This document shows positions 1 to 12,367 of a stretch of 42,393 nt of DNA, piece after piece (the stretch's first letter is position 1; each line of letters opens with the position of its first letter). The position numbers and the translations under genes were made by a program. The DNA is from Verrucomicrobiales bacterium (lineage in GTDB: Bacteria > Verrucomicrobiota > Verrucomicrobiia > Limisphaerales > UBA1096), in the NCBI GenBank assembly GCA_002684915.1, contig NYWG01000229.1, positions 1-42,393 of the forward strand, written 5' to 3'. The notes beneath the pieces were generated by a model. The model searched no databases and was not told the DNA's origin. It worked only from the letters and a program-made list of their open reading frames with translations.

Positions 1-1
1 A

Positions 2-112
2 CCAGAGGAGTATCGTCTCAAGTTAGAGTTACTTACCATTGAAGAATTGGTAGAGGAGACATCAACTGGTGAAGGTTACACACTGGATGAGTTTATGGAG
101 AACCACGGGTGA
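2..112 (+). CDS. 3' end of a truncated hypothetical protein (...LTIEELVEETSTGEGYTLDEFMENHG*)
   Basis: Open frame 2 from the window edge to TGA at 110-112. Confidence 0.6.
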   Translation, partial: PEEYRLKLELLTIEELVEETSTGEGYTLDEFMENHG

Positions 113-124
113 CAGTTGAGGGAG

Positions 125-165
125 TGTCCACTATTGTGGCACAGCACCCCAAAACCGTGTATATT
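125..165 (+). promoter_or_regulatory. Candidate bipartite promoter: TGTCCA(125) + TGGCAC(137) boxes, -10 TATATT(160-165)
   Basis: TGTCCACTATTGTGGCACAGCACCCCAAAACCGTGTATATT, upstream of ATG at 190. Confidence 0.5.
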
Positions 166-189
166 AAGAGAGTCAAAGGAACACACCAC

Positions 190-444
190 ATGCAACTCAC
201 CACACTCGTCACCACCGTTGATTTCTTTCCTGAGGCATTCATCGCTGAAGAGTCTGGCACTGTCGTCAAGCGTTTCCAGAAGCGTGTCACCTTCAACTCC
301 AACGGTCTCAAGTCTTACAGCACTGTCACTGCTCTCACAGCACGTCACGAGTGGTCTGAGCGCATTGCTAACGGTGCTGAGGTCACTGGTTACAACGTAG
401 ATCAGATGCCTCGCTCTGAGTACATGCCAATGGCAGTAGGTTGA
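190..444 (+). CDS. Hypothetical small protein (MQLTTLVTTVDFFPEAF...)
   Basis: ORF in frame of 109..444; the 5' extension overlaps promoter-like sequence, so the ATG at 190 is preferred. Confidence 0.65.
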   Translation: MQLTTLVTTVDFFPEAFIAEESGTVVKRFQKRVTFNSNGLKSYSTVTALTARHEWSERIANGAEVTGYNVDQMPRSEYMPMAVG

Positions 445-761
445 TGATAGAACTACCCTCAGATTTTCCACACACAGCACCCGAGCACTATTATTATGAA
501 TGTAAGGATTTCAAACGTAATGTGGTTGCTATATGGCTTTGTAACACTCAAAGTTATGCTTATACTGCTGATAGTCCTATTCGTACCATCTGGGGATTCG
601 TCAAGTTCAAGCGAACGAAGAGAAGCACTACGCACACTTACCATGCCCCCATCAACTGTAATAAAGTAGGTGCTGAAGTAGATATAAATGATACTAGAGT
701 TTATACTGCTATGCAGATACTCAAACCACTCACACCAACAATACTTAACTTCTTAAGTTAA
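441..761 (+). CDS. Hypothetical protein (PEHYYYECKDF...)
   Basis: 106-aa ORF, 4-nt overlap with the previous gene. Confidence 0.75.
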   Translation: MMIELPSDFPHTAPEHYYYECKDFKRNVVAIWLCNTQSYAYTADSPIRTIWGFVKFKRTKRSTTHTYHAPINCNKVGAEVDINDTRVYTAMQILKPLTPTILNFLS

Positions 762-774
762 AGTATGCTATAAT
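745..774 (+). promoter_or_regulatory. Hairpin (TTAACTT-CTT-AAGTTAA) followed by -10 TATAAT
   Basis: Perfect 7-bp inverted repeat 745-761, TATAAT at 769-774, gene start at 796. Confidence 0.55.
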
Positions 775-795
775 TACACCAGTTCTAGGGGCACT

Positions 796-987
796 ATGTC
801 TGAGTATTATGATTTAAAACAGCAAAAGCGTAAGGATGCATTTGGTTTGTTTTACGAGAGTGTATTGAAACCTGATCATGAGTTACGTAAATGTGCCCAT
901 AACCAAGAATGTTACAACGAACTAATAGAATGGAGACAAGACATTCTCCAATACTTACAGAAACGTCGCCAACAGGAGTTCAACTAA
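796..987 (+). CDS. Hypothetical small protein
   Basis: 63-aa ORF downstream of TATAAT; TAATG overlap with next gene. Confidence 0.7.
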   Translation: MSEYYDLKQQKRKDAFGLFYESVLKPDHELRKCAHNQECYNELIEWRQDILQYLQKRRQQEFN

Positions 988-1325
988 TGCATGAAGGATC
1001 TTATGAGCACCAACGCAAATTTCGTATGCAAGATGCGATTGATGATTATCTCCAAGATGATAAAGTATCAGCACGACAAGCGTATGAAGAGATTATATCT
1101 TGTATCCAGGATGTGATTGATGTGCATGGTAGAGTAGCAAATCGTGCAGAAGAGTTGAGATGCTTGATGTCACTTGATCAAGATTTTAATACTGATGCAT
1201 ACTATAGAAAAGATATCAAGCAAGAGGATCCTGTGTACAATGATGATGGTACTACATCATATGGTTATGCTGCTCATATTACCCTTGGTGACGTTACTAA
1301 ATTCCAGCGAGGATCTTCATTGTGA
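987..1325 (+). CDS. Hypothetical protein (MHEGSYEHQRKFRMQDAIDDYL...)
   Basis: Internal ATG of listed ORF 909..1325, overlapping the upstream stop. Confidence 0.7.
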   Translation: MHEGSYEHQRKFRMQDAIDDYLQDDKVSARQAYEEIISCIQDVIDVHGRVANRAEELRCLMSLDQDFNTDAYYRKDIKQEDPVYNDDGTTSYGYAAHITLGDVTKFQRGSSL

Positions 1326-1483
1326 AATACCGTGTTGAATGGTGGAGAAGCAAGCAAAAAGGATATCGTAGTAGGCAATCTGTTGTATTGTTCAATGATG
1401 CTGATGTATTGCATTTGGTGAAGAACATTCAAGAAGATCCTAATGTGAGTACTGTAGATGTTATCCCCGTATTAGGAGAATGA
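1322..1483 (+). CDS. Hypothetical small protein (MKYRVEWWRSKQKGYRSRQ...)
   Basis: GTG start, GTGA overlap; 53 aa translated by hand. Confidence 0.6.
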   Translation: MKYRVEWWRSKQKGYRSRQSVVLFNDADVLHLVKNIQEDPNVSTVDVIPVLGE

Positions 1484-1644
1484 ATATTGTAAGAGTTCCG
1501 CTCACTGCGGAACAAATGGAATTTATAATGGATATGATGATGAAGTATCCTAAAGACACTGTACATCATAAGCATGTTGATGATGCGTTTCTGTATGACC
1601 ACTTAGAGAAGTGGCACAGGTACGCGCTTCAAGCGGAGGAATGA
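1480..1644 (+). CDS. Hypothetical small protein (MNIVRVPLTAEQMEFIMDMMMK...)
   Basis: ATGA overlap; 54 aa translated by hand. Confidence 0.6.
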   Translation: MNIVRVPLTAEQMEFIMDMMMKYPKDTVHHKHVDDAFLYDHLEKWHRYALQAEE

Positions 1645-1653
1645 CCCTATAAT
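1612..1653 (+). promoter_or_regulatory. Candidate bipartite promoter: TGGCAC(1612) - 30 nt - TATAAT(1648)
   Basis: Box 36 nt upstream of -10; palindrome CGCTTcAAGCG (1625-1635) between them. Confidence 0.5.
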
Positions 1654-1675
1654 AAGCACATAAGCAACCAACACC

Positions 1676-1834
1676 ATGCTCAAGAAACTCCCCAACGGCA
1701 CCATGCTCTACCTGCCATACAACGTTGATGAGTACACTGCTCGCCAACGCATGGAAGCATATGCTAATCGTGAGCGTAACACAGACTACGATGGTCGCAA
1801 CTTATTCAACGAAATGTTTGGTGAAGACAACTAA
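1676..1834 (+). CDS. Hypothetical small protein (MLKKLPNGTMLYLPYNVDEYTARQRMEAY...)
   Basis: 52-aa ORF after TATAAT at 1648. Confidence 0.65.
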   Translation: MLKKLPNGTMLYLPYNVDEYTARQRMEAYANRERNTDYDGRNLFNEMFGEDN

Positions 1835-1968
1835 TGAAAGTAACTCAGTATCTCTTGAGCGGCATCTTTGCCTTTGTTGCTCTCACTTGCTATCTGCTAT
1901 TCCTAGCAGATCGTGACTCCAAAATGATGAACTACTATGACTCAACAATCCAATCAAGAGTTCGTTAA
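1834..1968 (+). CDS. Small single-TM protein (MKVTQYLLSGIFAFVALTCYLLFLADRDSK...)
   Basis: Hydrophobic segment; TAATG overlap with upstream gene. Confidence 0.6.
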   Translation: MKVTQYLLSGIFAFVALTCYLLFLADRDSKMMNYYDSTIQSRVR

Positions 1969-2080
1969 CGACCTATTTGACAAACTATTCAGTCATGTTG
2001 ATACTGACATGATTGATCTACATGATGATGACTCATGCTGTGATCATCTTGAATTTGAACAACTCACTATTAATTTTTAA
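1937..2080 (+). CDS. Hypothetical acidic small protein (MTQQSNQEFVNDLFDKLFSHVDTD...)
   Basis: 47-aa ORF, overlaps previous gene. Confidence 0.55.
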   Translation: MTQQSNQEFVNDLFDKLFSHVDTDMIDLHDDDSCCDHLEFEQLTINF

Positions 2081-2083
2081 ACT

Positions 2084-2245
2084 ATGACTATTTCTGAAGT
2101 AATGCTTGATCGTTGGCTCCTAGAGCAAATTGATGAGATCAATGATGACGCAGTAAACAACTTTGCAGACTATACCAGACAAAATCAAGACTGGCGCAAG
2201 TGTGCAACTGAAGAACTGTCACAAGAGGCATTGGATCTGCTCTGA
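2084..2245 (+). CDS. Hypothetical small protein (MTISEVMLDRWLLEQIDEINDD...)
   Basis: 53-aa ORF; stop codon lies within a hairpin. Confidence 0.6.
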   Translation: MTISEVMLDRWLLEQIDEINDDAVNNFADYTRQNQDWRKCATEELSQEALDLL

Positions 2246-2258
2246 TCCAGCCTATACT
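2217..2258 (+). promoter_or_regulatory. Candidate bipartite promoter: TGTCAC(2217) - 30 nt - TATACT(2253)
   Basis: GAACTGTCACA box; hairpin TGGATC-tgctct-GATCCA (2232-2249) between box and -10. Confidence 0.55.
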
Positions 2259-2284
2259 ATATTCATACCAAAGGGAACCACCCA

Positions 2285-2746
2285 ATGACTGCCACCACCT
2301 TCGCTGATTACGCTGCATCTGCTGAAGCACGTAACGATATCGCACAAGCGATCCTAGGTCACACATTTGCGCTCTGCCAAGCACTTGAGCAAGACTTTGT
2401 GAAGGAGAGCATCCGTCGTCAAGAGTTCTTCATGGCATCTGCCGTAAACAGAGAGTATCATGAGCAGAAGATTGCTGACCTGAAGAATAACATTGGTGCT
2501 TATCAGTTTACTGTTGATACTGGTCGTAAGTATCACAAGGTCATGATGACTACTGATGGTGGTAATCGCTCTGTTCACTGCTTCATTGATAAGAAGACAG
2601 GTGAAGTGTACAAAGCAGCATCTATCAAAGCACCTGCCAAAGGTGTTCGTTTCAACATGCTAATCATCAAAGAGCGTGAGTTTATGCTTGAAAACGCTGA
2701 CTGGGCGGGTGGTTACCTCTATCGTAACGCTTCCTACACTGGTTGA
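2285..2746 (+). CDS. Hypothetical protein, 153 aa
   Basis: Long ORF downstream of TATACT. Confidence 0.8.
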   Translation: MTATTFADYAASAEARNDIAQAILGHTFALCQALEQDFVKESIRRQEFFMASAVNREYHEQKIADLKNNIGAYQFTVDTGRKYHKVMMTTDGGNRSVHCFIDKKTGEVYKAASIKAPAKGVRFNMLIIKEREFMLENADWAGGYLYRNASYTG

Positions 2747-2771
2747 CAACCTGTCTCATACATAGTATACT
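2743..2771 (+). promoter_or_regulatory. Consensus sigma70 promoter TTGACA-N17-TATACT
   Basis: TTGACA 2743-2748, 17-nt spacer, TATACT 2766-2771; -35 lies in palindrome GGTTGACAACC. Confidence 0.8.
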
Positions 2772-2793
2772 GTAGTTCATCCGATCTTATCTC

Positions 2794-3024
2794 ATGTCTG
2801 CTCCCCTGTTCTATCTCGTTGCTGATGGTAATGCATTTGCCATTGAAGATGACGGTTATATGTTTGGTGCTGCTGTTAATGATGACGGCAGTGTGGATTG
2901 GGACGGTTCTTACGAATTTACTCCCAATGAAGAGGATGTTGAGTACATTGCACATATGTGTAATCTACTCAAGCAAGCACAACAACTATCCCAAGAACAA
3001 ATTCAGGAGGTCTTCGTCAAATGA
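2794..3024 (+). CDS. Hypothetical acidic protein (MSAPLFYLVADGNAFAIEDDGYMFG...)
   Basis: 76-aa ORF directly after the consensus promoter. Confidence 0.75.
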   Translation: MSAPLFYLVADGNAFAIEDDGYMFGAAVNDDGSVDWDGSYEFTPNEEDVEYIAHMCNLLKQAQQLSQEQIQEVFVK

Positions 3025-3314
3025 TTTACTTGTCCCGATATACTAAGACGAAACCACAGCATGCTGCTCCATTAATTGTAGCAGACATCAAGACCCTCTT
3101 GAAACCGCTTCCAACGCACTACAGCAGAGGTGAGTATAGTGTACCCGTCACAACCACGGCAGAACCCCTTACAGACGAATACAGACGCTTCTGGCGTTAT
3201 CATGGTCACTATACTCTAGAATTTACCAAGGCATTGATGCAATCTTTGCCTCAAGACGTTAAATTCGTCTCATATGATCATCTCAACAACAAACTGACTC
3301 TTATCAAACTATGA
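3021..3314 (+). CDS. Hypothetical protein
   Basis: 97-aa ORF, ATGA overlap. Confidence 0.7.
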   Translation: MIYLSRYTKTKPQHAAPLIVADIKTLLKPLPTHYSRGEYSVPVTTTAEPLTDEYRRFWRYHGHYTLEFTKALMQSLPQDVKFVSYDHLNNKLTLIKL

Positions 3315-3538
3315 ATAACGTTGATGCTCTTCGGATATCCGAACAACGCGATGACATTTGCGAATGGATGATGACTCGGTTTCGTGAACTAATTGCAGAT
3401 GATCGTGTTGATGATGCACTGCATTTTGCAGATGAGTGGTTTGAATGGATGGATCCAGAAGGCTACATAAACGAGCAAACTTTGTTTTACGACGAGGATG
3501 AGCTCGCAGAACTCTACAAATCGCTCCAACATGGATGA
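3311..3538 (+). CDS. Hypothetical acidic protein
   Basis: 75-aa ORF, ATGA overlap. Confidence 0.7.
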   Translation: MNNVDALRISEQRDDICEWMMTRFRELIADDRVDDALHFADEWFEWMDPEGYINEQTLFYDEDELAELYKSLQHG

Positions 3539-3665
3539 CCAAATCAAGCAATTGATATTGTCATACATGGAAGCGGAAAACAAAAAAGATCACGCGCTAG
3601 CAGAGAAGATTCTCTATGACATCAACAAAGTCAAAGCCCTATGTCGTGAAGATTCCTCTGATTGA
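3531..3665 (+). CDS. Hypothetical small protein (MDDQIKQLILSYMEAENKKDHALAEKIL...)
   Basis: 44-aa ORF overlapping both neighbours. Confidence 0.5.
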   Translation: MDDQIKQLILSYMEAENKKDHALAEKILYDINKVKALCREDSSD

Positions 3666-3813
3666 TGCTCTAGAACAAGAGTATCAAGATTGGTTGATGA
3701 TTAAGCAGAGTTTGGGTATCAAACGTTCACTCAAAAGTTTCCTGTACTTTATTCACAACTATGGAATACCTGACCAAGAAGGAGGCAGTATGGATCTGCC
3801 GAAAGATGATTAA
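3616..3813 (+). CDS. Hypothetical protein
   Basis: 65-aa ORF. Confidence 0.6.
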   Translation: MTSTKSKPYVVKIPLIDALEQEYQDWLMIKQSLGIKRSLKSFLYFIHNYGIPDQEGGSMDLPKDD

Positions 3814-3952
3814 GGTATGGCATCCGGAATTACGCGGTAACATACCTGCAAAGCAGGAGTATTGGAGTAAGTTCCTTGACATTTTATATAATGATGGTAG
3901 AATTGAACAAACTGATTATGAAACCTGGTTATGCCCTTTCAAACTAAACTGA
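3761..3952 (+). CDS. Hypothetical protein
   Basis: 63-aa ORF. Confidence 0.55.
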   Translation: MEYLTKKEAVWICRKMIKVWHPELRGNIPAKQEYWSKFLDILYNDGRIEQTDYETWLCPFKLN

Positions 3953-4629
3953 TTAATGCTGTTGTTGGTACTGTAGTAGCACTTGCTGCCAATGTAGGCA
4001 CTCCTGCAATTGCAGATCCTCTTACAGATGATGATTACTATTCTAATCATTCCATGGGATGTATGCTTCTTCAAGAGTGTACTGATGATGTAGACGAAGT
4101 GTTCTCTCTTCTAGATGTTTCTTCTCAGTATGACAATACGGATTCTTTCTATCCTGTTGCGAATGAGTTTAACAATATGCTTGTGGCACTGAATCAAATC
4201 GGTGTCAGAGTATATCTTGCGGATGAGAAGTATTTCCCTGTAGGACATCGTGGTGTCTATCATACTGTGAGTAATAACTTCTTCTTGAACAAGGCATTTA
4301 TGGGTCGTCCTAGTACACTTATGAGTGTAATGCGTCATGAAGGATGGCATGCAGCGCAAGATTGTATGGCAGGTACGATTGATAATAGTATGATTGCTAT
4401 CATTATGCCTGAAGATAGCGTACCAATGTTGTGGCAAGAGATGGTGAAGCGGACATATGTATTGCAACCAGGTGCAATTCCGTGGGAGAAAGAAGCAACA
4501 TGGGCAGGTAAGACAGAAGGAATGACATTGAGTGCTCTTCAGAGTTGTGCAGCAGGAACAATGTGGTCAGATTATGAACCAACTCCTATGACACGTGAAT
4601 GGTTGGAGAACAATGGATTCATCAAATAA
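3931..4629 (+). CDS. Putative exported metallopeptidase-like protein (signal-peptide-like N-terminus, HEGWH motif)
   Basis: N-terminal LINAVVGTVVALAANVGTPAIADP; SVMRHEGWHAAQDCMAG fits HExxH. Confidence 0.65.
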   Translation: MPFQTKLINAVVGTVVALAANVGTPAIADPLTDDDYYSNHSMGCMLLQECTDDVDEVFSLLDVSSQYDNTDSFYPVANEFNNMLVALNQIGVRVYLADEKYFPVGHRGVYHTVSNNFFLNKAFMGRPSTLMSVMRHEGWHAAQDCMAGTIDNSMIAIIMPEDSVPMLWQEMVKRTYVLQPGAIPWEKEATWAGKTEGMTLSALQSCAAGTMWSDYEPTPMTREWLENNGFIK

Positions 4630-4897
4630 GTACATCACTAAAGTACAACAGTATCAAGACACAGAGGACTACTACATTGAAATCCCAGAAGAAATCACCA
4701 ACGAACTCAACTGGCAAGAAGGAGATGAAATCTGTTGGACAATTGTCAACGAACAAATCATCCTCACGAACTACACAAAGAAAACTAGAAGAAAATATCA
4801 AAGCGTTAACATCAGTGACGCCACGCAAGAAGACTACCAAGACTTCTGGTACAACAGCGAAAGCGAAGGGCAAGAGTACACCAGCAACAGAGTTTAG
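4613..4897 (+). CDS. AbrB/MazE-like (SpoVT-AbrB fold) protein
   Basis: YITKVQQYQDTEDYYIEIPEEITNELNWQEGDEICWTIVNEQIILTN resembles swapped-hairpin AbrB domains. Confidence 0.6.
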   Translation: MDSSNKYITKVQQYQDTEDYYIEIPEEITNELNWQEGDEICWTIVNEQIILTNYTKKTRRKYQSVNISDATQEDYQDFWYNSESEGQEYTSNRV

Positions 4898-5087
4898 ATA
4901 TCAGAATTCACGTAAGTTAAATCTATTTCCTTACGTGGATACATTCCCATGGTTTCTAGAAAATCGTAAGGAAGACAATAAGAAGTGTTGGTTTCAGTGT
5001 GAAGATCATGTGATTAAATATGTCACGAGGTATAACCTCTATCCAATTAAAGATTATAAGTGTTTATGTTACAACCAGAACCAATAG
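4815..5087 (+). CDS. Hypothetical protein in an alternate frame (MTPRKKTTKTSGTTAKAKGK...LCYNQNQ)
   Basis: Distal part of ORF 4599..5087 looks coding; GTG at 4815 proposed, 83-nt overlap with upstream gene. Confidence 0.45.
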   Translation: MTPRKKTTKTSGTTAKAKGKSTPATEFRYQNSRKLNLFPYVDTFPWFLENRKEDNKKCWFQCEDHVIKYVTRYNLYPIKDYKCLCYNQNQ

Positions 5088-5671
5088 ACGAGAGTAAGAT
5101 CATTGTTACCGATGATTTCCTACCAGAGAAAGACTTTGCAATTGTACGAGACTATATCTTAGGAAATCAAATGTCCTGGTATTGGGTTGGTAACTATGCT
5201 GGTGGTTATCCATTGATGGAGCATGTATTCTATTCCGAAAAGAGAGGACCTGAACTACATGTTGGTACACCAATGGTGAATACAGTTGCATTTAGAGCAA
5301 TTGATCCTGTCATCGCACGTCTTCAACCAGCATCATTGATTCGTGTCCGCGCTAATTGTAATTGGCGTACTAATGATAAGATGCAACAACGTGATTGGCA
5401 CACGGATGTACCATTTGAATGTCAATCTGGCATATATTATATGCATGATAGTGATGGTTGCACAGTATTCAAAGATGGTACAAATGAGCAAATTGAAGTA
5501 GAAACTAAAGAGAATCGCTTCATTCAGTTTCCTTCTACATATGAGCATGCTGCAACACCATTCACAGAGGGAGTACGTCGTGTGGTATTGAATATTAACT
5601 TCCATATCAACAAAATCATCCCAAATGTGACCACTATTACAACTGGCACAAGCAACCCTGAGCACTGGTGA
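5066..5671 (+). CDS. 2OG-Fe(II) oxygenase-like protein
   Basis: DWHTDVPFECQSGIYYM...FPSTYEHAATPFTEGVRRVVLNINF: HxD...H...R arrangement on a double-stranded beta-helix-like pattern. Confidence 0.75.
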   Translation: MLQPEPIDESKIIVTDDFLPEKDFAIVRDYILGNQMSWYWVGNYAGGYPLMEHVFYSEKRGPELHVGTPMVNTVAFRAIDPVIARLQPASLIRVRANCNWRTNDKMQQRDWHTDVPFECQSGIYYMHDSDGCTVFKDGTNEQIEVETKENRFIQFPSTYEHAATPFTEGVRRVVLNINFHINKIIPNVTTITTGTSNPEHW

Positions 5672-5684
5672 TCTGTGTTATAAT
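5644..5684 (+). promoter_or_regulatory. Candidate bipartite promoter: TGGCAC(5644) - 29 nt - TATAAT(5679)
   Basis: AACTGGCACA box 35 nt upstream of TATAAT; opens the 5707-7750 overlapping gene block. Confidence 0.5.
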
Positions 5685-5706
5685 AACAGAGTAACCAACC
5701 TATATC

Positions 5707-5862
5707 ATGAGCAACCGTTTTTGGTTATTGACAAGTACATTATGTGGTATCGGGTTATTGTATGTCACTGCAATGCCTGCTGCCACACAAGGTGAGATGG
5801 TTCAAACCATCGTTGAGATTGTGCATTCTTTCCCTAAAGCAAAAGATGGAGAACAGTACTAA
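5707..5862 (+). CDS. Small membrane/exported peptide (MSNRFWLLTSTLCGIGLLYVTAMPAATQG...)
   Basis: 51 aa with hydrophobic N-terminus, after TATAAT. Confidence 0.6.
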   Translation: MSNRFWLLTSTLCGIGLLYVTAMPAATQGEMVQTIVEIVHSFPKAKDGEQY

Positions 5863-6005
5863 TGACTAAGAAGCAAATCATAAGCAAGAAAGGTGAGACC
5901 TGGGAGTATGAAGAAACTCCTGAAACTCGTGCTGCATTGAAGAAATTACATGATGGTATTCGTAAACTAGAAGAACAAGCACCTGATTATGGAGTTGGTA
6001 AATGA
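5862..6005 (+). CDS. Hypothetical small protein (MTKKQIISKKGETWEYEETPETR...)
   Basis: 47-aa ORF, TAATG overlap. Confidence 0.6.
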   Translation: MTKKQIISKKGETWEYEETPETRAALKKLHDGIRKLEEQAPDYGVGK

Positions 6006-6238
6006 CTCAAGATGAACTATGGGATATGATGCATACTCTTGGTTGGGATGTAAGACATGATGATATTGTACTTGAGGTTGGTGGTACTGTAGTTTCTGGT
6101 ATTGAACAACCAGAAGGATATAATAAGAAGTGGGCATCACCTAAAGGTCATCGTAAGTATAATAAGGATGCATTCATTGTAATTAAGAATAGGTCGCGTG
6201 ATGATCATACGAAATCAAAAGCACAAACAAATGAATAG
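6002..6238 (+). CDS. Hypothetical protein
   Basis: 78-aa ORF, ATGA overlap. Confidence 0.65.
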   Translation: MTQDELWDMMHTLGWDVRHDDIVLEVGGTVVSGIEQPEGYNKKWASPKGHRKYNKDAFIVIKNRSRDDHTKSKAQTNE

Positions 6239-6725
6239 ATTCTTTATCCGTGAACGACATCAAATCATCACTGATACCTATCATGATCTGTCTATTAATG
6301 ATAGATTCATGCAGGAATTAGAAGACATTAACTGGCCTATGTCTTATAAGACTAATGTTGGTGCTATGATGTCTGATTGGACAATGAAATCAGATAATGT
6401 TAACATGATCTATGAATGGATCATCTCATTACTACATCAAACTTATCCGGATTTACCTACAGATCTATATCAGTTGTATGAAGCATGGTTTGCAAAGTAT
6501 AATGATGGTGATAGTACACGATGTCATGATCATAAGTTTGCACCATTCTCTTTTGTTTACTATATTAATTCACCTGAAGGATCATCATCACTCTATTTCC
6601 CTACATCAAATAAAGAAATCACTCCCGCTCCAGGTAAAGTGGTCATCTTCCCTGGTAACGTAGAACATTATGTACCAATCAATCAATGTACAAATAGAGT
6701 TGTCCTCGCAGGTAATATCAAATGA
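6231..6725 (+). CDS. 2OG-Fe(II) oxygenase-like protein
   Basis: RCHDHKFAPFSFVYYINSPEGSSSLYFP...PGKVVIFPGNVEHYVP...NRVVLAGNI: HxH/D...H...R pattern. Confidence 0.7.
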   Translation: MNRFFIRERHQIITDTYHDLSINDRFMQELEDINWPMSYKTNVGAMMSDWTMKSDNVNMIYEWIISLLHQTYPDLPTDLYQLYEAWFAKYNDGDSTRCHDHKFAPFSFVYYINSPEGSSSLYFPTSNKEITPAPGKVVIFPGNVEHYVPINQCTNRVVLAGNIK

Positions 6726-7309
6726 AAGCACAATTTGAAATTACTCCCACAACCTATGATCCTACCATTGAATGGGGTGATGAAGTTAAAGTCTTTCGTG
6801 GTCGTTTTCCTCTACATGCAACAATTACTTGGGATAACATTGTCCCCCTCTGGCAACAAGAACGTAACCATGATTACTTAAGATGCTTAACACCAGATAA
6901 TCATCAGGTATATGAAAACCCCATTGATTATGAAGGTGAAACTGATAACCCTGATTTAGCATTGGAGATTGATAGACAAGTACTCATACCAACATTCATT
7001 ACACATACTCAAGACTTCCTTGATCCTAACACTGTTAACATATGCCAAGAAGCATATGACTTAAACCTTAAAAACTTACACATCTACAGTAATGTCCTTG
7101 CTGAATCATTTCTCTTTAAATCTCATCGTGATCCCCATTCTATCTTCATCATACAATGCATAGGTATGATTCAATATGAGTTTGAAGATGATACAATTCA
7201 TCAACTCCATCCAGGTGATGCCATCTATATCCCAAGAGGACTATATCATGCACCTAAAATCTTTGGTCCACGTGTTACTTTCTCTTACAATTGGCATTAC
7301 AGACGATGA
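6722..7309 (+). CDS. Cupin/JmjC-like protein
   Basis: FKSHRDPHSIFIIQCIGMIQYEFEDDTIHQLHPGDAIYIPRGLYHAPKIFGPRVTFSYN cupin-type motifs. Confidence 0.7.
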   Translation: MKAQFEITPTTYDPTIEWGDEVKVFRGRFPLHATITWDNIVPLWQQERNHDYLRCLTPDNHQVYENPIDYEGETDNPDLALEIDRQVLIPTFITHTQDFLDPNTVNICQEAYDLNLKNLHIYSNVLAESFLFKSHRDPHSIFIIQCIGMIQYEFEDDTIHQLHPGDAIYIPRGLYHAPKIFGPRVTFSYNWHYRR

Positions 7310-7548
7310 CATACACACCAACAATTAATGATAGAGTACGATGGAAAGATCATGAAGGTTGGGTATACTTCATTTGCTCTGATTACTTTACATTAGAACT
7401 TGGTATTAGACCAAAGAAAGATAACCAAGGTTCTCCACATAAAAAACATCATATACTTCTATTAGTATACAATAGATTCTATGATGAAGTACAATACCTA
7501 GGTAAACGTGCAACCAAATACGATGACACAATTGATCCAACCCTCTGA
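7306..7548 (+). CDS. Hypothetical protein (MTYTPTINDRVRWKDHEGWVYFICSDYFTLE...)
   Basis: 80-aa ORF with ATGA overlap; internal Met of listed ORF 7291. Confidence 0.65.
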   Translation: MTYTPTINDRVRWKDHEGWVYFICSDYFTLELGIRPKKDNQGSPHKKHHILLLVYNRFYDEVQYLGKRATKYDDTIDPTL

Positions 7549-7750
7549 TCCACAATACTTTACCCATACATCAACAGAACCATACGATAGACATCATTAC
7601 ATCCTACATTACAAGGATAATACACAACACAAATACACTGATTGGCAAGACCTTTACCTTAAATGGTTTCAAACTCCTAAACAATTCTTATCTCATGTTG
7701 AAGTGATAGATGTACCTACCCTCCGCACCTCTCCACCACAGGGTTTTTGA
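7523..7750 (+). CDS. Hypothetical small protein
   Basis: ORF of track 7508..7750, Met at 7523. Confidence 0.55.
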   Translation: MTQLIQPSDPQYFTHTSTEPYDRHHYILHYKDNTQHKYTDWQDLYLKWFQTPKQFLSHVEVIDVPTLRTSPPQGF

Positions 7751-7802
7751 AGATACTTATGGATACTACCCAACTCTTTATTAATCATTAAATTAATATA
7801 GT

Positions 7803-7877
7803 GTAGGTGCTCGGTAGTTACTGTCAAGATGCTGTGAAGGTACTCTGGAGACGCTGGCTTAGCATCCTACCTACCGA
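7803..7877 (+). ncRNA. Candidate structured RNA with nested stems and alternative pairing
   Basis: TCGGTAG(7811-7817)/CTACCGA(7871-7877); GATGCT(7828-7833)/AGCATC(7861-7866); competing GTAGGT(7803-7808)/ACCTAC(7869-7874). Confidence 0.4.
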
Positions 7878-7908
7878 AAGTCAAGCAAACATGTGCCAGA
7901 CCTCAAAG

Positions 7909-7950
7909 TGGCACAGAAACCCTCAGAATCCCTCCTAGGTGCCTTATAAT
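7909..7950 (+). promoter_or_regulatory. Candidate bipartite promoter: TGGCAC(7909) - 30 nt - TATAAT(7945)
   Basis: AAAGTGGCACAG box 36 nt upstream of -10. Confidence 0.5.
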
Positions 7951-8040
7951 AATTGGAGAAACAGAGAAAACTGAGTTTTTGAGATTTTTGAGTTTTTCAA
8001 AGTTTCTATTTTCTCAGTTTTTTGTGTTTTTCCAATTATT
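7948..8040. repeat. Long inverted repeat (28-nt arms, 37-nt loop) upstream of ORF 8056
   Basis: AATAATTGGAGAAACAGAGAAAACTGAG (7948-7975) vs CTCAGTTTTTTGTGTTTTTCCAATTATT (8013-8040); 25/28 Watson-Crick, 2 further G-U in RNA. Confidence 0.8.
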
Positions 8041-8055
8041 AAATGTTAATCTTTA

Positions 8056-8292
8056 ATGGAAATCGTGCAAATCTACACAGAACTAGCATCAACTGCGGTA
8101 AGTAGTGTTAAAATTGATGAAAAACTAGTTAAAATCGTGTATAATAGTAATACTGACAAAGAATATACATTCAACTGTGATAATACAGATGAATTCAATA
8201 CTAAACTGTCAAATACACTAACAAACAAAGAATCAGTCGGTAGATTCATCTCTTCCAGTGTAAAGGAAGGATTGATTGTACCATCTAAATAA
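8056..8292 (+). CDS. Hypothetical protein (MEIVQIYTELASTAVSSVKIDEKLVKIVYNSNTDKEYTF...)
   Basis: 78-aa ORF; compact strand pattern (KTSC-like, tentative). Confidence 0.7.
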   Translation: MEIVQIYTELASTAVSSVKIDEKLVKIVYNSNTDKEYTFNCDNTDEFNTKLSNTLTNKESVGRFISSSVKEGLIVPSK

Positions 8293-8332
8293 TCACTCAC
8301 CCACTGTTATTCAGTAAGATTTAATTAGAACG

Positions 8333-8491
8333 ATGAGTAAGAAGAACTATCGCGGTAATACTGATTATCGCGATGAATTGCGAGATGAGTTTGAAGATTT
8401 CGGATACAATGTCAAGAATGTGAAACGATCCGCTAAAAAGAAGGTAGCAAAGTTCAAACGCGAAATCAATGATTATGATGACAGTTATTGA
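8333..8491 (+). CDS. Small basic protein (MSKKNYRGNTDYRDELRDEFEDFGYNVKNVKRSAKKKVAKFKRE...)
   Basis: 52-aa ORF translated by hand. Confidence 0.6.
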   Translation: MSKKNYRGNTDYRDELRDEFEDFGYNVKNVKRSAKKKVAKFKREINDYDDSY

Positions 8492-8493
8492 AG

Positions 8494-8534
8494 TGGCACA
8501 GTAGGATGGCACAGGACTCAAAATCGTGTATTGT
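8494..8534 (+). promoter_or_regulatory. Candidate promoter with tandem TGGCACAG boxes (8494, 8507) and -10 TATTGT(8529)
   Basis: TGGCACAGTAGGATGGCACAGGACTCAAAATCGTGTATTGT. Confidence 0.55.
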
Positions 8535-8559
8535 ATAGGAGTCGTCAGGAAAACAGCAA

Positions 8560-8811
8560 GTGACAGTCCAAGTCGTCAAGCATTCATTCTATAAGATTGA
8601 GATTGACACTCATGAGGCACCACAGCACCCCATCATCTATTTCCGTAAGTGTGGCAAGTGTACCACTGCCAAGGGTATGGATCGCCAGCACAATCGGATC
8701 GTAAACGAGACCGTAGAGGCATGGCGTCAGTTTGAGGGTCAGATCCGTCGTTACACTGTGTCACGTGTACCATCGGACGTGGTGGTTAAAGGCGAACTAC
8801 GTGCCGCTTGA
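8560..8811 (+). CDS. Hypothetical protein (MTVQVVKHSFYKIEIDTHEAPQHPIIYFRKCGKCTTAKG...)
   Basis: 83-aa ORF, GTG start. Confidence 0.7.
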   Translation: MTVQVVKHSFYKIEIDTHEAPQHPIIYFRKCGKCTTAKGMDRQHNRIVNETVEAWRQFEGQIRRYTVSRVPSDVVVKGELRAA

Positions 8812-8816
8812 CGAAC

Positions 8817-8858
8817 TGTCCATAAGGGGTTGCATTTCAACCCCATCTCTGCCATACT
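8817..8858 (+). promoter_or_regulatory. Candidate bipartite promoter: TGTCCA(8817) - 30 nt - CATACT(8853), with hairpin GGGGTTG-catTT-CAACCCC
   Basis: GAACTGTCCATAAG box; perfect 7-bp stem 8826-8844. Confidence 0.5.
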
Positions 8859-9041
8859 ATGAAAGTACCAAACAAATCAAGCATGTTCACTCTCGCTCAC
8901 GCTGCATCACTCAACGGATTCATCAACGAAATGTCACCCGATCTTGAGATGTGCTGCGATTTCATTGAGTCACAGGGTATTGAGTTGACTCCGAAGGTTA
9001 TTGACCAGATCAGCGGCATCCTAGAGTTTGCCAACGCCTGA
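8859..9041 (+). CDS. Hypothetical small protein
   Basis: 60-aa ORF; the ATG directly abuts the CATACT, so the start may be later. Confidence 0.6.
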   Translation: MKVPNKSSMFTLAHAASLNGFINEMSPDLEMCCDFIESQGIELTPKVIDQISGILEFANA

Positions 9042-9082
9042 TCTTCTCTTTCTTTCATACTCACCACACTAACTAACATCAC

Positions 9083-9409
9083 ATGCGTAAGATTGAATCC
9101 TTGATGAACACTGCTATCAAGAACAACGCTAATTGGTCTCGTGCTAATACCAGTGTTGTGACTGAGGACGGTGTGTCTACGGTACGTTTGCACGGCAACA
9201 AGATTGCTGAGGTAGGCGAAGCATTTGTGCGTATCTTTGACGGTGGATGGCAGTCTAATACCACCAAATCTCGTCTTAACGCTATCATCAACGAGTTCTG
9301 CAACGCATACACTGACGGTGTGTTTCAGAAGGACTTTGCATGGTACATCAGGGACAATAAGGTAACTCACGACTTCACCAACGGTTATGAGTTTGTTGAA
9401 TTTGCATAA
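9083..9409 (+). CDS. Conserved phage hypothetical protein (MRKIESLMNTAIKNNANWSRANTSVV...DGGWQSNTTKSRLNAI...)
   Basis: 108-aa ORF. Confidence 0.75.
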   Translation: MRKIESLMNTAIKNNANWSRANTSVVTEDGVSTVRLHGNKIAEVGEAFVRIFDGGWQSNTTKSRLNAIINEFCNAYTDGVFQKDFAWYIRDNKVTHDFTNGYEFVEFA

Positions 9410-9418
9410 TTAACAAAA

Positions 9419-9455
9419 CTCGGGAATTGCAACTTTTGCGGTTTCCGAGGTTTTT
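9419..9455 (+). terminator. Rho-independent-like terminator
   Basis: CTCGGGAA...TTTCCGAG stem extended by GCAA/TTGC, followed by GTTTTT. Confidence 0.65.
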
Positions 9456-9609
9456 CATATTTTGTACTTTTAACAATTTAATTAATTGCCATTAACACCG
9501 ACTAGTTGCAATGATGAACTATTCCCATGGTTTTTATGGATTATCGGTAAAAAGGTAATAAAATACATTAAACTAATATAACTATTAACATACTATAGTA
9601 AGTGTTACT

Positions 9610-9726
9610 ATGACTGTAGAAGAAATGTATCAAGAACTGATCAATCAGTTAGAGGAAGATAGTGATACAAACTACGATGATAGTTGTATGTTTGATGCAG
9701 ACATTGACTATACAACACAATCATAA
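9610..9726 (+). CDS. Hypothetical acidic small protein (MTVEEMYQELINQLEEDSDTNYDD...)
   Basis: 38-aa ORF after TATAGT-like element at 9594. Confidence 0.5.
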   Translation: MTVEEMYQELINQLEEDSDTNYDDSCMFDADIDYTTQS

Positions 9727-9743
9727 TATATTGGAGATCAGTT

Positions 9744-9947
9744 GTGACACTAAGTAAACTGGCACAGCACCACTTGATCTTCAATCAATCATCTGTCATA
9801 CTACGTATGTTAACACGAATTGATTCAATGTTTGACGAAATTCAAGACATGCAAGGTGAAATCTTTGACGTGCCAAACATAGAAACTGTTCTCGTTGAAG
9901 ATGAGAACGGAGAACTAGGAGTTGACCTCACTGACATCAACAACTGA
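9744..9947 (+). CDS. Hypothetical small protein; N-terminal part overlaps promoter-like sequence
   Basis: 67-aa ORF (GTG); an internal ATG at 9807 or 9831-9840 region may be the true start. Confidence 0.5.
   Translation: MTLSKLAQHHLIFNQSSVILRMLTRIDSMFDEIQDMQGEIFDVPNIETVLVEDENGELGVDLTDINN
9760..9802 (+). promoter_or_regulatory. Candidate bipartite promoter: TGGCAC(9760) - 31 nt - CATACT(9797), with TTGATC-N17 to -10
   Basis: AACTGGCACAG box 37 nt upstream of CATACT. Confidence 0.35.
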
Positions 9948-9967
9948 TCATCCACTAAGTAACAACA

Positions 9968-10222
9968 ATGTCTGCACAGTTCTACTCACTCAAAGCATTC
10001 AAAGCAAGGGTTGAAAATCTCATTGAACAACAGGGGGAAGATGCACCTTGTGCCGGTTGGATTTACACTAGCGAAGATGTTTTAACGTATGATGATAATG
10101 GTGATGAGGTGTATCAATCGGATGAAGTCTGCCAGGACGTGTTAACTAACCTGCAAGACTATGATCACATTCATTCAGCAATTGTTGATGCTATTGATAC
10201 AGAACTCGGAGAGTGTTTGTGA
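9968..10222 (+). CDS. Hypothetical acidic protein
   Basis: 84-aa ORF. Confidence 0.7.
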   Translation: MSAQFYSLKAFKARVENLIEQQGEDAPCAGWIYTSEDVLTYDDNGDEVYQSDEVCQDVLTNLQDYDHIHSAIVDAIDTELGECL

Positions 10223-10362
10223 AACACGAAGTCACATTGTATGTTGCAGGCACTGTATTTAAAGAACAAGTTGTTGCCCGTGACTATCAAGAAGCGAAGC
10301 AAGTTGCCATCGCACGTAACCCTAACGCTAGGGTAGTTAGTGTTACTGCCATCATGAACTAA
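10219..10362 (+). CDS. Hypothetical small protein (MKHEVTLYVAGTVFKEQVVARDYQEAKQVAIARNPNA...)
   Basis: 47-aa ORF, GTGA overlap. Confidence 0.65.
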   Translation: MKHEVTLYVAGTVFKEQVVARDYQEAKQVAIARNPNARVVSVTAIMN

Positions 10363-10411
10363 GGTCACTATGTAACACAAACGTTTTGGCTGCCGCAACC
10401 AGTTGGCAAGG

Positions 10412-10452
10412 TGGCACACAAAATGGGCACAGCACCTCAGATCGTGTATTGT
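10412..10452 (+). promoter_or_regulatory. Candidate promoter with tandem GGCACA boxes (10413, 10426) and -10 TATTGT(10447)
   Basis: TGGCACACAAAATGGGCACAGCACCTCAGATCGTGTATTGT. Confidence 0.55.
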
Positions 10453-10458
10453 AGACAC

Positions 10459-10692
10459 ATGAACAAATTCAAAGACCCCTGCACCATTGCCCTTGAGACC
10501 GATGAGGTGCTCATGAACATCCACAACCCCTACGTGGCGAACCTCGTGGAAATGGGATACGATCGCGCAGACTGTGAGATGGTCGCTGCTGCTGGTCGTG
10601 ATGTCACGTATCCTCGCACCATCTACGGTCGGACCTTTGACACAAAGGCAGAGTACGATGAAGCACTCGCTGACTACATCAACGGACTGTGA
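10459..10692 (+). CDS. Hypothetical protein (MNKFKDPCTIALETDEVLMNIHNPYVANLVEMGYDRADCE...)
   Basis: Internal ATG of ORF 10411 chosen because the promoter lies upstream. Confidence 0.65.
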   Translation: MNKFKDPCTIALETDEVLMNIHNPYVANLVEMGYDRADCEMVAAAGRDVTYPRTIYGRTFDTKAEYDEALADYINGL

Positions 10693-10883
10693 ACATGTAC
10701 GCAATTCAACCAAAGGCATGGGATCGGGTTGATCCTCACGGGTGCGACTACGCAACCAACATGACTGACGCATATGACTATGCAAGGCAGTGGAATGAAG
10801 ATTGTACCATATGGAAGGAAGGGACCAAGGCGTGGATGAAATGGATGTATGTGACAGATGAACAAGTGTCATCAGCAGGGTAG
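10689..10883 (+). CDS. Hypothetical small protein
   Basis: 64-aa ORF, GTGA overlap. Confidence 0.65.
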   Translation: MNMYAIQPKAWDRVDPHGCDYATNMTDAYDYARQWNEDCTIWKEGTKAWMKWMYVTDEQVSSAG

Positions 10884-10908
10884 TCAGGCACTCCCTGGGC
10901 TGTATAAT
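10867..10908 (+). promoter_or_regulatory. Candidate bipartite promoter: TGTCAT(10867) - 30 nt - TATAAT(10903), hairpin CAGGG...CCCTG
   Basis: CAAGTGTCATCAG box 36 nt upstream of TATAAT. Confidence 0.45.
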
Positions 10909-10933
10909 TAAAACAACAAAGCAAACAAACCAC

Positions 10934-11206
10934 ATGACCGCTTCCACCACATACAACGGTTGGGCAAACTACGAGACCTGGAACGCTTCCCTCTGGATGC
11001 AGAACGATGAGTTCCTGTACAACACCGCTAGGGCATGCGTACAGTATGCAGAGGGAGAGAACCCATGGACTAAGTTCATCCGTTGCATGACCGAAGGACA
11101 GATCGGACGCATGCTCGGTGAGACAGCAGACGGCGTTAAGTGGAACGACCCCGCCATTGATGAGGATGAGATGGTTGAGATGATGCTGGAACTCGTCGCA
11201 GATTGA
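10934..11206 (+). CDS. Hypothetical protein with NGWANYETWN motif, a recurrent phage small-protein family
   Basis: 90-aa ORF after TATAAT. Confidence 0.7.
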   Translation: MTASTTYNGWANYETWNASLWMQNDEFLYNTARACVQYAEGENPWTKFIRCMTEGQIGRMLGETADGVKWNDPAIDEDEMVEMMLELVAD

Positions 11207-11232
11207 GGGGTCGCCCCTCTCCATGCTACAAT
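11205..11232 (+). promoter_or_regulatory. Hairpin GAGGGG-TCG-CCCCTC followed by -10-like TACAAT
   Basis: Perfect 6-bp stem 11205-11219; TACAAT 11227-11232; start codon at 11255. Confidence 0.45.
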
Positions 11233-11254
11233 ACACAAGAACAACACACCCATC

Positions 11255-11518
11255 ATGGCAATGCTCAACCCGGTCATCATTCTCCACACCGACAGCACAG
11301 CAACTCATCAGATCAACCTCTACCCGGTCACCCGGCAGTGCATGGTTTTTTGGAACTCGGGACACTACAGCAACCACAAGGTGAGACGCCGCGATATGCT
11401 GCGCTTCCTAGTTGATCTCAAGCAATCGGCAGGCGAGTGGGTCAATCGCTACGTGCTTGACTCACCTCTAGCAACCGATTCTGAAACTGTCCCATCAGAG
11501 GCGACGGGGTGGAACTGA
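11255..11518 (+). CDS. Hypothetical protein
   Basis: 87-aa ORF. Confidence 0.65.
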   Translation: MAMLNPVIILHTDSTATHQINLYPVTRQCMVFWNSGHYSNHKVRRRDMLRFLVDLKQSAGEWVNRYVLDSPLATDSETVPSEATGWN

Positions 11519-11529
11519 TCCCCTATACT
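11488..11529 (+). promoter_or_regulatory. Candidate bipartite promoter: TGTCCC(11488) - 30 nt - TATACT(11524)
   Basis: GAAACTGTCCCATCAG box 36 nt upstream of TATACT. Confidence 0.5.
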
Positions 11530-11535
11530 AAGGAC

Positions 11536-11724
11536 ATGGAAAACAAAGCAATGCAACGAACCGGTTTCTTCATCCACAACGAGAACCCCTCCCCTCTGAT
11601 GCAGACCGTCATGGAGTCAATCCAACGCCAGCACATGGCAGAGATGGAGTACAGGCAGGCAGTGAGAGCAGGTCGCATTCAACCCGACCAATTCACTAAC
11701 TGGAACATCAGCGACAGACACTAG
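11536..11724 (+). CDS. Hypothetical small protein (MENKAMQRTGFFIHNENPSPLMQ...)
   Basis: Internal Met of ORF 11509, just after TATACT. Confidence 0.6.
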   Translation: MENKAMQRTGFFIHNENPSPLMQTVMESIQRQHMAEMEYRQAVRAGRIQPDQFTNWNISDRH

Positions 11725-11771
11725 ACGCTGACCCTGTAGACTTTACTCAAGAAACAAAACCACTTCATCTC

Positions 11772-12272
11772 ATGCAAGGTTACAAGAGAGTCAACGAACC
11801 CGGTGGCATCTACATCATCGCTGCTCGCTGTGAGCACTTTGAGGCAGCAACCGACATGATCAAGATCAAGATCGGTCTGGCATACAAGGGCAAGCAGGGC
11901 ACCATGGAACGTGCCCTTGAGCATAAGACATCCTGCCCCGATAACCTGGAGCTGATGGCATACTTTGCTGTGGATGACATGACTACCATTCCCATGCCAG
12001 AGGACACGATCGGTGGCGTTCATGAGATGGAGCGTTACTTGCATGCACTCATGGTGGCATACGACTGGGCACACATCGGGCAGGGCACCGAGTGGTTCGC
12101 TGTTCCCTCCGACATCCTGACCAATCCAGACAAGTGCCCTGAACTCACCAAGGTCATCAACGATGCACCTGCATGGAATGAGGTGACATGCTTCCAACGC
12201 TTGGGACATAACACCAACACCACCAAGCGATCAGCAAAGGAGAAGAAGATAGACAGGGCAGGCAGAGTCTGA
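11772..12272 (+). CDS. T5orf172 / GIY-YIG-type nuclease-domain protein
   Basis: GGIYIIAARCEH...IKIKIGLAYKG...ALEHKTSCPDNLELMAYF...HEMERYLHALM...GTEWFAV. Confidence 0.75.
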   Translation: MQGYKRVNEPGGIYIIAARCEHFEAATDMIKIKIGLAYKGKQGTMERALEHKTSCPDNLELMAYFAVDDMTTIPMPEDTIGGVHEMERYLHALMVAYDWAHIGQGTEWFAVPSDILTNPDKCPELTKVINDAPAWNEVTCFQRLGHNTNTTKRSAKEKKIDRAGRV

Positions 12273-12367
12273 GAGTATACCACAGAATGCCCCCGGTGAG
12301 CAGCAGGGGGTTGGCGTTTCCAGCAAAAACCGGTAAGTCCCTAACCTACAAAAGTATCCCAGCGACC

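What the first reader, a model, noticed from the sequence alone, without database searches (positions are those of the whole stretch)
125..11529. Recurring bipartite promoter: AAsTGkCmCA box 35-37 nt upstream of the -10 at eleven sites
Aligning the small-gene gaps on their -10-like hexamers places a TGkC-type box at a nearly fixed offset (box start to -10 start): 125 TGTCCA/TATATT 35; 1612 TGGCAC/TATAAT 36; 2217 TGTCAC/TATACT 36; 5644 TGGCAC/TATAAT 35; 7909 TGGCAC/TATAAT 36; 8494 TGGCAC/TATTGT 35; 8817 TGTCCA/CATACT 36; 9760 TGGCAC/CATACT 37; 10412 TGGCAC/TATTGT 35; 10867 TGTCAT/TATAAT 36; 11488 TGTCCC/TATACT 36. Left flanks agree too: GAAcTGTC, GAAACTGTC, CAAGTGTC, GAAGTGGC, AAAGTGGC, AACTGGC. 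The box would lie near -48 to -43 from the start site, a position used by transcription activators, and most sites lack a good -35. The one clear TTGACA-N17-TATACT promoter (2743) has no box. This suggests a phage-specific, activator-dependent (middle-type?) promoter class controlling the accessory genes. Caveats: -10s were picked by eye, three boxes are degenerate, some boxes lie in upstream coding sequence, and I cannot exclude that a related motif has been published for other cyanophages.
Basis: partly seen in the sequence, partly recalled or inferred. Interest (0 to 1): 0.85.

Follow-up and report, generated by a model that had tools for sequence, protein, structure and literature searches.

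The report
Cyanophage promoters mimicking a host activator site
This ocean virus of photosynthetic bacteria places the same two-part switch in front of eleven of its small genes, and the switch copies, in a more perfect form, the landing site of the host's own stress regulator, so the virus probably uses that host protein to turn its first genes on.

Summary
All eleven box/-10 pairs are at the stated coordinates and far exceed chance. Two IMG/VR scans found the same dyad at the same spacing, mostly in cyanomyovirus contigs. Orthologous gaps in relatives keep it. It recurs in Syn9, P-TIM40, S-PM2, P-HM2 and P-SSM2, but not in T4, Ma-LMM01, S-TIM5 or T7-like cyanophages. The same dyad, at the same distance, lies upstream of the host sRNA yfr2. 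Published work says that promoter is bound by the cyanobacterial GntR regulator PMM1637 through 'CGRE1' (PMC6778093). None of eleven reference phages encodes GntR; 109 of 121 picocyanobacterial genomes do. Best reading: an early-type promoter class borrowing the host GntR activator through near-palindromic operators, not a phage-encoded middle class. A 'novel regulatory element' of Syn9 early genes was reported in 2016 (recalled; not held), so the element is probably known. Whether the host-factor link is published could not be checked.

The parts
110..165 (+). Promoter 1: dyad 110-129 (TGACAGTT-GAGG-GAGTGTCC), -10 TATATT at 160; second TGGCACA at 137
   Evidence: 7 of 7 orthologous gaps keep dyad and spacing
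1597..1653 (+). Promoter 2: dyad 1597-1616 (GACCACTT-AGAG-AAGTGGCA), -10 TATAAT at 1648
2202..2258 (+). Promoter 3: dyad 2202-2221 with a weak left arm, -10 TATACT at 2253; drives the DUF7717 gene at 2285
   Evidence: 8 of 9 orthologous gaps keep it, including P-TIM40 and S-PM2
5629..5684 (+). Promoter 4: dyad 5629-5648, -10 TATAAT at 5679
7894..7950 (+). Promoter 5: dyad 7894-7913 (TGCCAGAC-CTCA-AAGTGGCA), -10 TATAAT at 7945; long hairpin in the predicted leader
   Evidence: 1 of 6 orthologous gaps keeps it
8479..8534 (+). Promoter 6: perfect dyad 8479-8498 (TGACAGTT-ATTG-AAGTGGCA), -10 TATTGT at 8529; second TGGCACA at 8507
   Evidence: (0 mismatches); 5 of 5 orthologous gaps
8802..8858 (+). 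Promoter 7: dyad 8802-8821, -10 CATACT at 8853
9745..9802 (+). Promoter 8: dyad 9745-9764 (TGACACTA-AGTA-AACTGGCA), -10 CATACT at 9797
10397..10452 (+). Promoter 9: dyad 10397-10416, -10 TATTGT at 10447; predicted +1 is the A of the ATG at 10459; second GGGCACA at 10425
   Evidence: combined score about 17.2, just under the cut of 18
10852..10908 (+). Promoter 10: dyad 10852-10871 (TGACAGAT-GAAC-AAGTGTCA), -10 TATAAT at 10903; drives the DUF7249 gene at 10934
   Evidence: 5 of 6 orthologous gaps
11473..11529 (+). Promoter 11: dyad 11473-11492, -10 TATACT at 11524; predicted +1 is the A of the ATG at 11536
   Evidence: 5 of 5 orthologous gaps

Best explanation
The eleven sites are promoters of one class that marine T4-like cyanophages share. 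Each has a sigma-70-type -10, a weak or absent -35, and a dyad operator (TGMCASTT-N4-AASTGKCA) centred about 53 nt upstream of the start. The dyad is a more symmetric version of the operator in the host's yfr2 sRNA promoters, which the literature says is bound by the host GntR-family activator PMM1637 (CGRE1 element). The most likely mechanism is that GntR already present in the cell binds the phage DNA as a dimer and recruits host SigA-RNA polymerase (contact with alpha-CTD or sigma region 4 is a guess). That would switch on the small accessory genes immediately after entry, without any phage protein. Shown here: dyad, spacing, conservation, distribution and the match to yfr2 promoters. Inferred: binding by GntR, activation, and early timing.
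For: Dyad and spacing: scanning IMG/VR with the right arm and TATAAT alone gives a spacing peak at 35-38 (78 of 130). The unselected left arm CA appears in 59 of 73 at that spacing against 11 of 50 elsewhere (p=7e-11). Scanning with the dyad alone gives -10 hexamers at 35-38 at 31 per bin against 1.1 per bin elsewhere. A purine followed by T falls at the predicted +1 in 93 of 123. Conservation: orthologous gaps, down to 38% protein identity, keep dyad and spacing. Syn9 has 12 forward sites, 1 reverse, 0.4 in shuffles. Distribution: 5-16 dyads in each of six T4-like marine cyanophages; 0-1 in T7-like cyanophages, T4, Ma-LMM01 and S-TIM5. Host match: the scan of bacterial genomes hit promoters of Rfam Cyano-1, the yfr2 family, mostly with -10-like hexamers at box+36 to 37. 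In 51 picocyanobacterial yfr2 promoters the best dyad is centred -52 to -58 in 44. PMC6778093: PMM1637 binds yfr2 promoters containing CGRE1, is common to all cyanobacteria, and mediates Yfr2 induction. GntR found in 109 of 121 host genomes and 0 of 11 phages.
Against: No binding, footprint, start-site or expression data were available for this phage. The published CGRE1 logo could not be read, so CGRE1 = this dyad is inferred from its being the upstream element shared by yfr2 promoters. The right arm is degenerate in host yfr2 promoters, so phage and host sites are similar, not identical. Two yfr2 copies in filamentous species (L359, L360) and a few picocyanobacterial ones lack a recognisable dyad. 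Most dyad hits in filamentous cyanobacterial genomes are not next to yfr2.
Confidence: 0.7

Rival explanations
1. The dyad is bound by a phage-encoded activator (made early or carried in the virion), so this is a middle or virion-dependent class.
For: Near-perfect dyads are rare in host genomes (10 sites with at most 1 mismatch in 61 picocyanobacterial genomes) but frequent in the phages, as expected if a phage protein selected for them. The small genes it controls are all of unknown function, so an unknown DNA-binding protein is possible.
Against: The same dyad at the same distance lies in yfr2 promoters of uninfected hosts, including filamentous species. No GntR domain was found in 11 phages. 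PMC5780444 states that T4-like cyanophages lack T4-like middle promoters and motA and/or asiA.
Confidence: 0.15
2. The dyad is recognised by a different host regulator that also controls yfr2, so the host-hijack reading holds but the protein is not PMM1637.
For: Only the promoter region, not the exact operator bases, is tied to PMM1637 in the text I could read. Hosts carry other regulators (three Crp-type, Fur-type, LexA; PMC6778093).
Against: PMC6778093 says PMM1637 binds yfr2 promoters containing CGRE1 and that CGRE1 occurs nowhere else in MED4, which fits the dyad found here.
Confidence: 0.12
3. The dyad is a repressor or replication/packaging element that happens to lie near promoters.
For: Dyads can serve many roles, and the operator sometimes overlaps upstream coding sequence.
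Against: The distance to the -10 is fixed within 35-38 and orientation follows the downstream gene. A site centred at -53 does not overlap the polymerase core footprint, so repression there would be unusual. PMC6778093 describes GntR-mediated induction of Yfr2.
Confidence: 0.03

Closest known systems
Host yfr2 (Rfam RF01701 Cyano-1) promoters with CGRE1, bound by the GntR regulator PMM1637 (PMC6778093; original DNA Res 2018, 10.1093/dnares/dsy019, not held)
   Same: TGTGMCAGTT left arm with a TG-rich right arm, centred about 52-58 nt upstream of the RNA start, sigma-70-type -10 at about box+35 to 37
   Different: Phage sites are much more symmetric (TGKCACA right arm kept), occur many times per genome and drive protein genes; in MED4 the host element occurs at yfr2 only
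Early-gene regulatory element of cyanophages Syn9 and P-TIM40 (Doron et al. 2016, 10.1038/ismej.2015.210; recalled, not held)
   Same: Syn9 and P-TIM40 both carry this dyad plus -10 in the corresponding small-gene cluster
   Different: The published logo and gene list could not be compared, so identity is inferred
T4 middle promoter (MotA box; PMC2988021)
   Same: Activator site stands in for a good -35 while the -10 is kept
   Different: MotA box TGCTT is centred at -30 and bound by a phage monomer with AsiA; here a dyad at about -53, no TGCTT
S-PM2d genes under host PhoB control (PMC10976474)
   Same: Cyanophage promoters exploiting a host transcription factor
   Different: Pho box and phosphate response at a few genes; here a different dyad at many small-gene promoters
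P2 Ogr / P4 Delta late promoters (from memory)
   Same: Dyad operator centred about -55, weak -35, activator-dependent
   Different: Ogr and Delta are phage or satellite zinc-finger proteins with another sequence; late genes

Membership tests
GntR/CGRE1-regulated (yfr2-type) promoter | Dyad TGTGMCAGTT-N4-(right arm) about 53 nt upstream of the start | tested here: met
   Best dyad centred -52 to -58 in 44 of 51 picocyanobacterial yfr2 promoters; same geometry in the window sites
GntR/CGRE1-regulated (yfr2-type) promoter | GntR regulator present in hosts | tested here: met
   109 of 121 genomes over the PF00392 cut-off; the actual host of this phage is unknown
GntR/CGRE1-regulated (yfr2-type) promoter | Physical binding by PMM1637 | not testable with these tools
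   Reported for yfr2 promoters in PMC6778093; not tested for any phage promoter here
GntR/CGRE1-regulated (yfr2-type) promoter | Agreement with the published CGRE1 logo | not testable with these tools
   DNA Res 2018 paper not held
Syn9-type early-gene element | Occurs in Syn9 and P-TIM40 in front of the small-gene cluster | tested here: met
   Syn9 12 forward sites against 0.4 in shuffles; P-TIM40 10 sites, most about 70-90 nt before annotated starts. That those genes are the published early genes was not checked
Syn9-type early-gene element | Early expression | not testable with these tools
   Paper not held; gene lists of PMC5082946 are in supplements
T4 MotA/AsiA middle promoter | MotA box (w)(w)(w)TGCTTtA 12 +/- 1 bp upstream of the -10 | tested here: not met
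   No TGCTT at that position in any of the eleven sites (sequences; definition)
T4 late promoter | TATAAATA -10 without upstream element | tested here: not met
   Hexamers are TATAAT, TATACT, TATTGT, CATACT, TATATT
Sigma-54 promoter (TGGCAC-N5-TTGCW) | TTGC 5 nt after TGGCAC | tested here: not met
   None of the eleven sites has it (sequences)

The most novel reading that the evidence does not exclude
Marine T4-like cyanophages start infection by commandeering the host's GntR stress activator. They carry many near-palindromic 'super-operators' that the hosts themselves almost lack, tying early phage transcription to the host's nitrogen/light stress state and possibly drawing GntR away from yfr2.
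Probability: 0.6. Interest if true: 0.75.

Novelty: new member of a known kind. Interest (0 to 1): 0.58.

Why it matters
Cyanophages of this group infect the most abundant photosynthetic cells in the sea, and how they start transcription without MotA/AsiA-type factors has been unclear. If the link holds, one named host protein explains the promoter class, making early infection testable by gel shift and by a single host gene knockout. It would also connect infection to nitrogen starvation and high light, the conditions that induce Yfr2 (PMC6778093), and allow such promoters to be annotated directly from sequence in uncultured viruses.

Tried and rejected
MotA box, T4 late and sigma-54 readings: rejected on sequence and position. 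The 5396 match: inside a coding gene, treated as chance. First idea that hits in filamentous cyanobacteria were only transposon ends or random palindromes: partly rejected once six proved to lie upstream of Rfam Cyano-1; the rest remain unexplained. Reading the key papers failed (Doron 2016; Lambrecht 2018), and literature searches for a stated phage-GntR link found none in the held library. In the orthologue test the gene chosen for box 1612 was a wrong frame and is not counted; for box 10412 the top-scoring dyad was not the relevant one, so it is not counted. Cyanomyovirus-like contigs were not significantly more frequent among dyad hits with a -10 (64 of 78) than among those without (28 of 37).
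Full report
Observation. The box/-10 pattern occurs 12 times on the forward strand of 1-12,300 against 0.61 in dinucleotide shuffles, and the strict TGGCAC form 7 times against 0.02; beyond 12.3 kb it is not enriched. The window is part of a T4-like cyanophage: its 5' third is a cluster of small genes related to Kyanoviridae such as ACG-2014e, S-CAM4 and Syn1, followed by large ORFs in the place of gp25, gp6 and the fibre genes of those phages.

The box is half a dyad. An IMG/VR scan for AGTGGCACA-N14..44-TATAAT let the spacing vary freely; it still peaked at 35-38 (9, 44, 17 and 8 of 130). The unselected sequence upstream of the box showed a conserved left arm: CA at -12 in 59 of 73 correctly spaced sites against 11 of 50 others (p=7e-11). 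The logo reads TGMCASTT-N4-AASTGKCACA. A second scan with the dyad alone put -10 hexamers at 36 (67) and 37 (43), about 27-fold above other distances over the 35-38 bins. The window sites show the left arm too: 8479-8498 is a perfect dyad, and 11 hits with at most 3 mismatches occur in the window against 2.5 expected. Nine of these eleven are reported promoters; the 2217 and 11488 sites exceed 3 mismatches and two hits are unrelated.

Promoter quality. A score built from the other phages' dyads plus a -10 matrix finds ten of the eleven sites in the first 12.3 kb, against 0.10 in shuffles, and none after that. Five reverse-strand hits at the same cut are the same palindromes read backwards. In the IMG/VR set a purine followed by T sits 12 nt after the -10 start in 93 of 123, the expected start-site signature; nine of the eleven window sites have it. 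-35 matches are 2-4 of 6. Relatives keep the element: orthologous gaps conserve dyad and spacing in 7 of 7 (site 125), 8 of 9 (2217), 5 of 5 (8494), 5 of 6 (10867) and 5 of 5 (11488), but only 1 of 6 at 7909. Protein identity falls to 38% in P-TIM40 while the dyad remains.

Distribution. With up to 2 mismatches the dyad occurs 6 times in Syn9, 10 in P-TIM40, 12 in S-PM2, 9 in P-HM2, 16 in P-SSM2 and 5 in ACG-2014e, against 0-2 for the reversed pattern. T7-like P-SSP7 and Syn5 have 1 and 0; T4, Ma-LMM01 and S-TIM5 have none. This agrees with the Ma-LMM01 study, which found SigA-like sites and no phage-specific motif (PMC5780444). Syn9 has twelve scored promoters on the forward strand, one on the reverse, 0.4 in shuffles, mostly in its 43-54 kb small-gene cluster. 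Of the IMG/VR contigs with dyad and -10, 64 of 78 carry at least two ORFs like cyanomyovirus proteins.

Host link. A scan of a one-per-species genome collection for the dyad returned many cyanobacteria. Six of those sites sit just before an RNA that Rfam identifies as Cyano-1, the yfr2 sRNA family (family identity from general knowledge), mostly with a -10-like hexamer at box+36 to 37. I then took yfr2 loci from the family of Cyanobium sp. CH-040, where 114 of 121 genomes have the RNA. In 51 distinct promoters the best dyad is centred -52 to -58 from the RNA start in 44, and 43 exceed the 95th percentile of shuffles; the left arm TGTGMCAGTT is strong and the right arm weak. PMC6778093 states that the GntR-family regulator PMM1637, common to all cyanobacteria, binds yfr2 promoter regions containing CGRE1, that CGRE1 occurs nowhere else in the MED4 genome, and that PMM1637 mediates Yfr2 induction in nitrogen starvation and high light. 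GntR was found over cut-off in 109 of 121 host genomes and in none of eleven phages.

Mechanism. The simplest account is that phage DNA presents GntR with operators more symmetric than the host's own: dyads with at most one mismatch number 10 in 61 host genomes but 29 in six phage genomes (counted). Pre-existing GntR would then recruit host polymerase at once, giving an early class. Shown: sequence, geometry, conservation, distribution and host match. Inferred: binding, activation, timing and the polymerase contact.

Relation to known work. From memory, the abstract of Doron et al. 2016 reports a novel regulatory element for Syn9 early genes and host-like promoters for middle genes, also in P-TIM40 and conserved in T4-like cyanophages. 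The window's box class and its single TTGACA-N17-TATACT promoter without a dyad (2743) fit that scheme. The paper is not held, nor is Lambrecht et al. 2018, so I cannot say whether the host-factor link was already made. A related precedent is host PhoB control of S-PM2d genes (PMC10976474). I therefore class the window sites as new members of a known kind, with the host-factor assignment as the part that may be new.

Noticed in passing
window 10447-10459 and 11524-11536: The predicted start site falls on the A of the ATG, so these two genes may have leaderless mRNAs; 10 of 123 IMG/VR sites of the class do the same with an ORF of at least 30 codons, and relatives keep the arrangement at 11536.
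   Followed up: partly
window 137, 8507, 10425: Three promoters with TATATT or TATTGT -10s carry a second TGGCACA/GGGCACA copy at the -35 position (22-23 nt before the -10) and share CGTG just before the -10; role unknown.
   Followed up: no
window 7952-8036: The predicted leader after the 7945 -10 folds into a very long hairpin (-35.2 kcal/mol, z -6.8); relatives have similar T-rich repeats before the orthologous gene.
   Followed up: partly
Syn9 DQ149023 46307, 48575, 51017, 53013: Several Syn9 promoters share extra sequence around and after the -10, near CGTGTATTCTATAAGAGTCAAAGG; the window 125 site has a similar AAGAGAGTCAAAGG.
   Followed up: no
L240, L254, L255, L284, L326, L340: Perfect dyads in filamentous cyanobacteria (Mojavia, Moorena, Fischerella and others) that are not next to a recognised yfr2 and lack a -10 at the fixed spacing; origin unexplained.
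   Followed up: partly
whole window (G000:C229): The contig sits in a 4.5 Mb assembly without yfr2, so the phage contig was probably binned with a non-cyanobacterial genome.
   Followed up: partly
window 2285-2746 and 10934-11206: Two genes of this promoter class belong to Pfam families of unknown function, DUF7717 and DUF7249.
   Followed up: no
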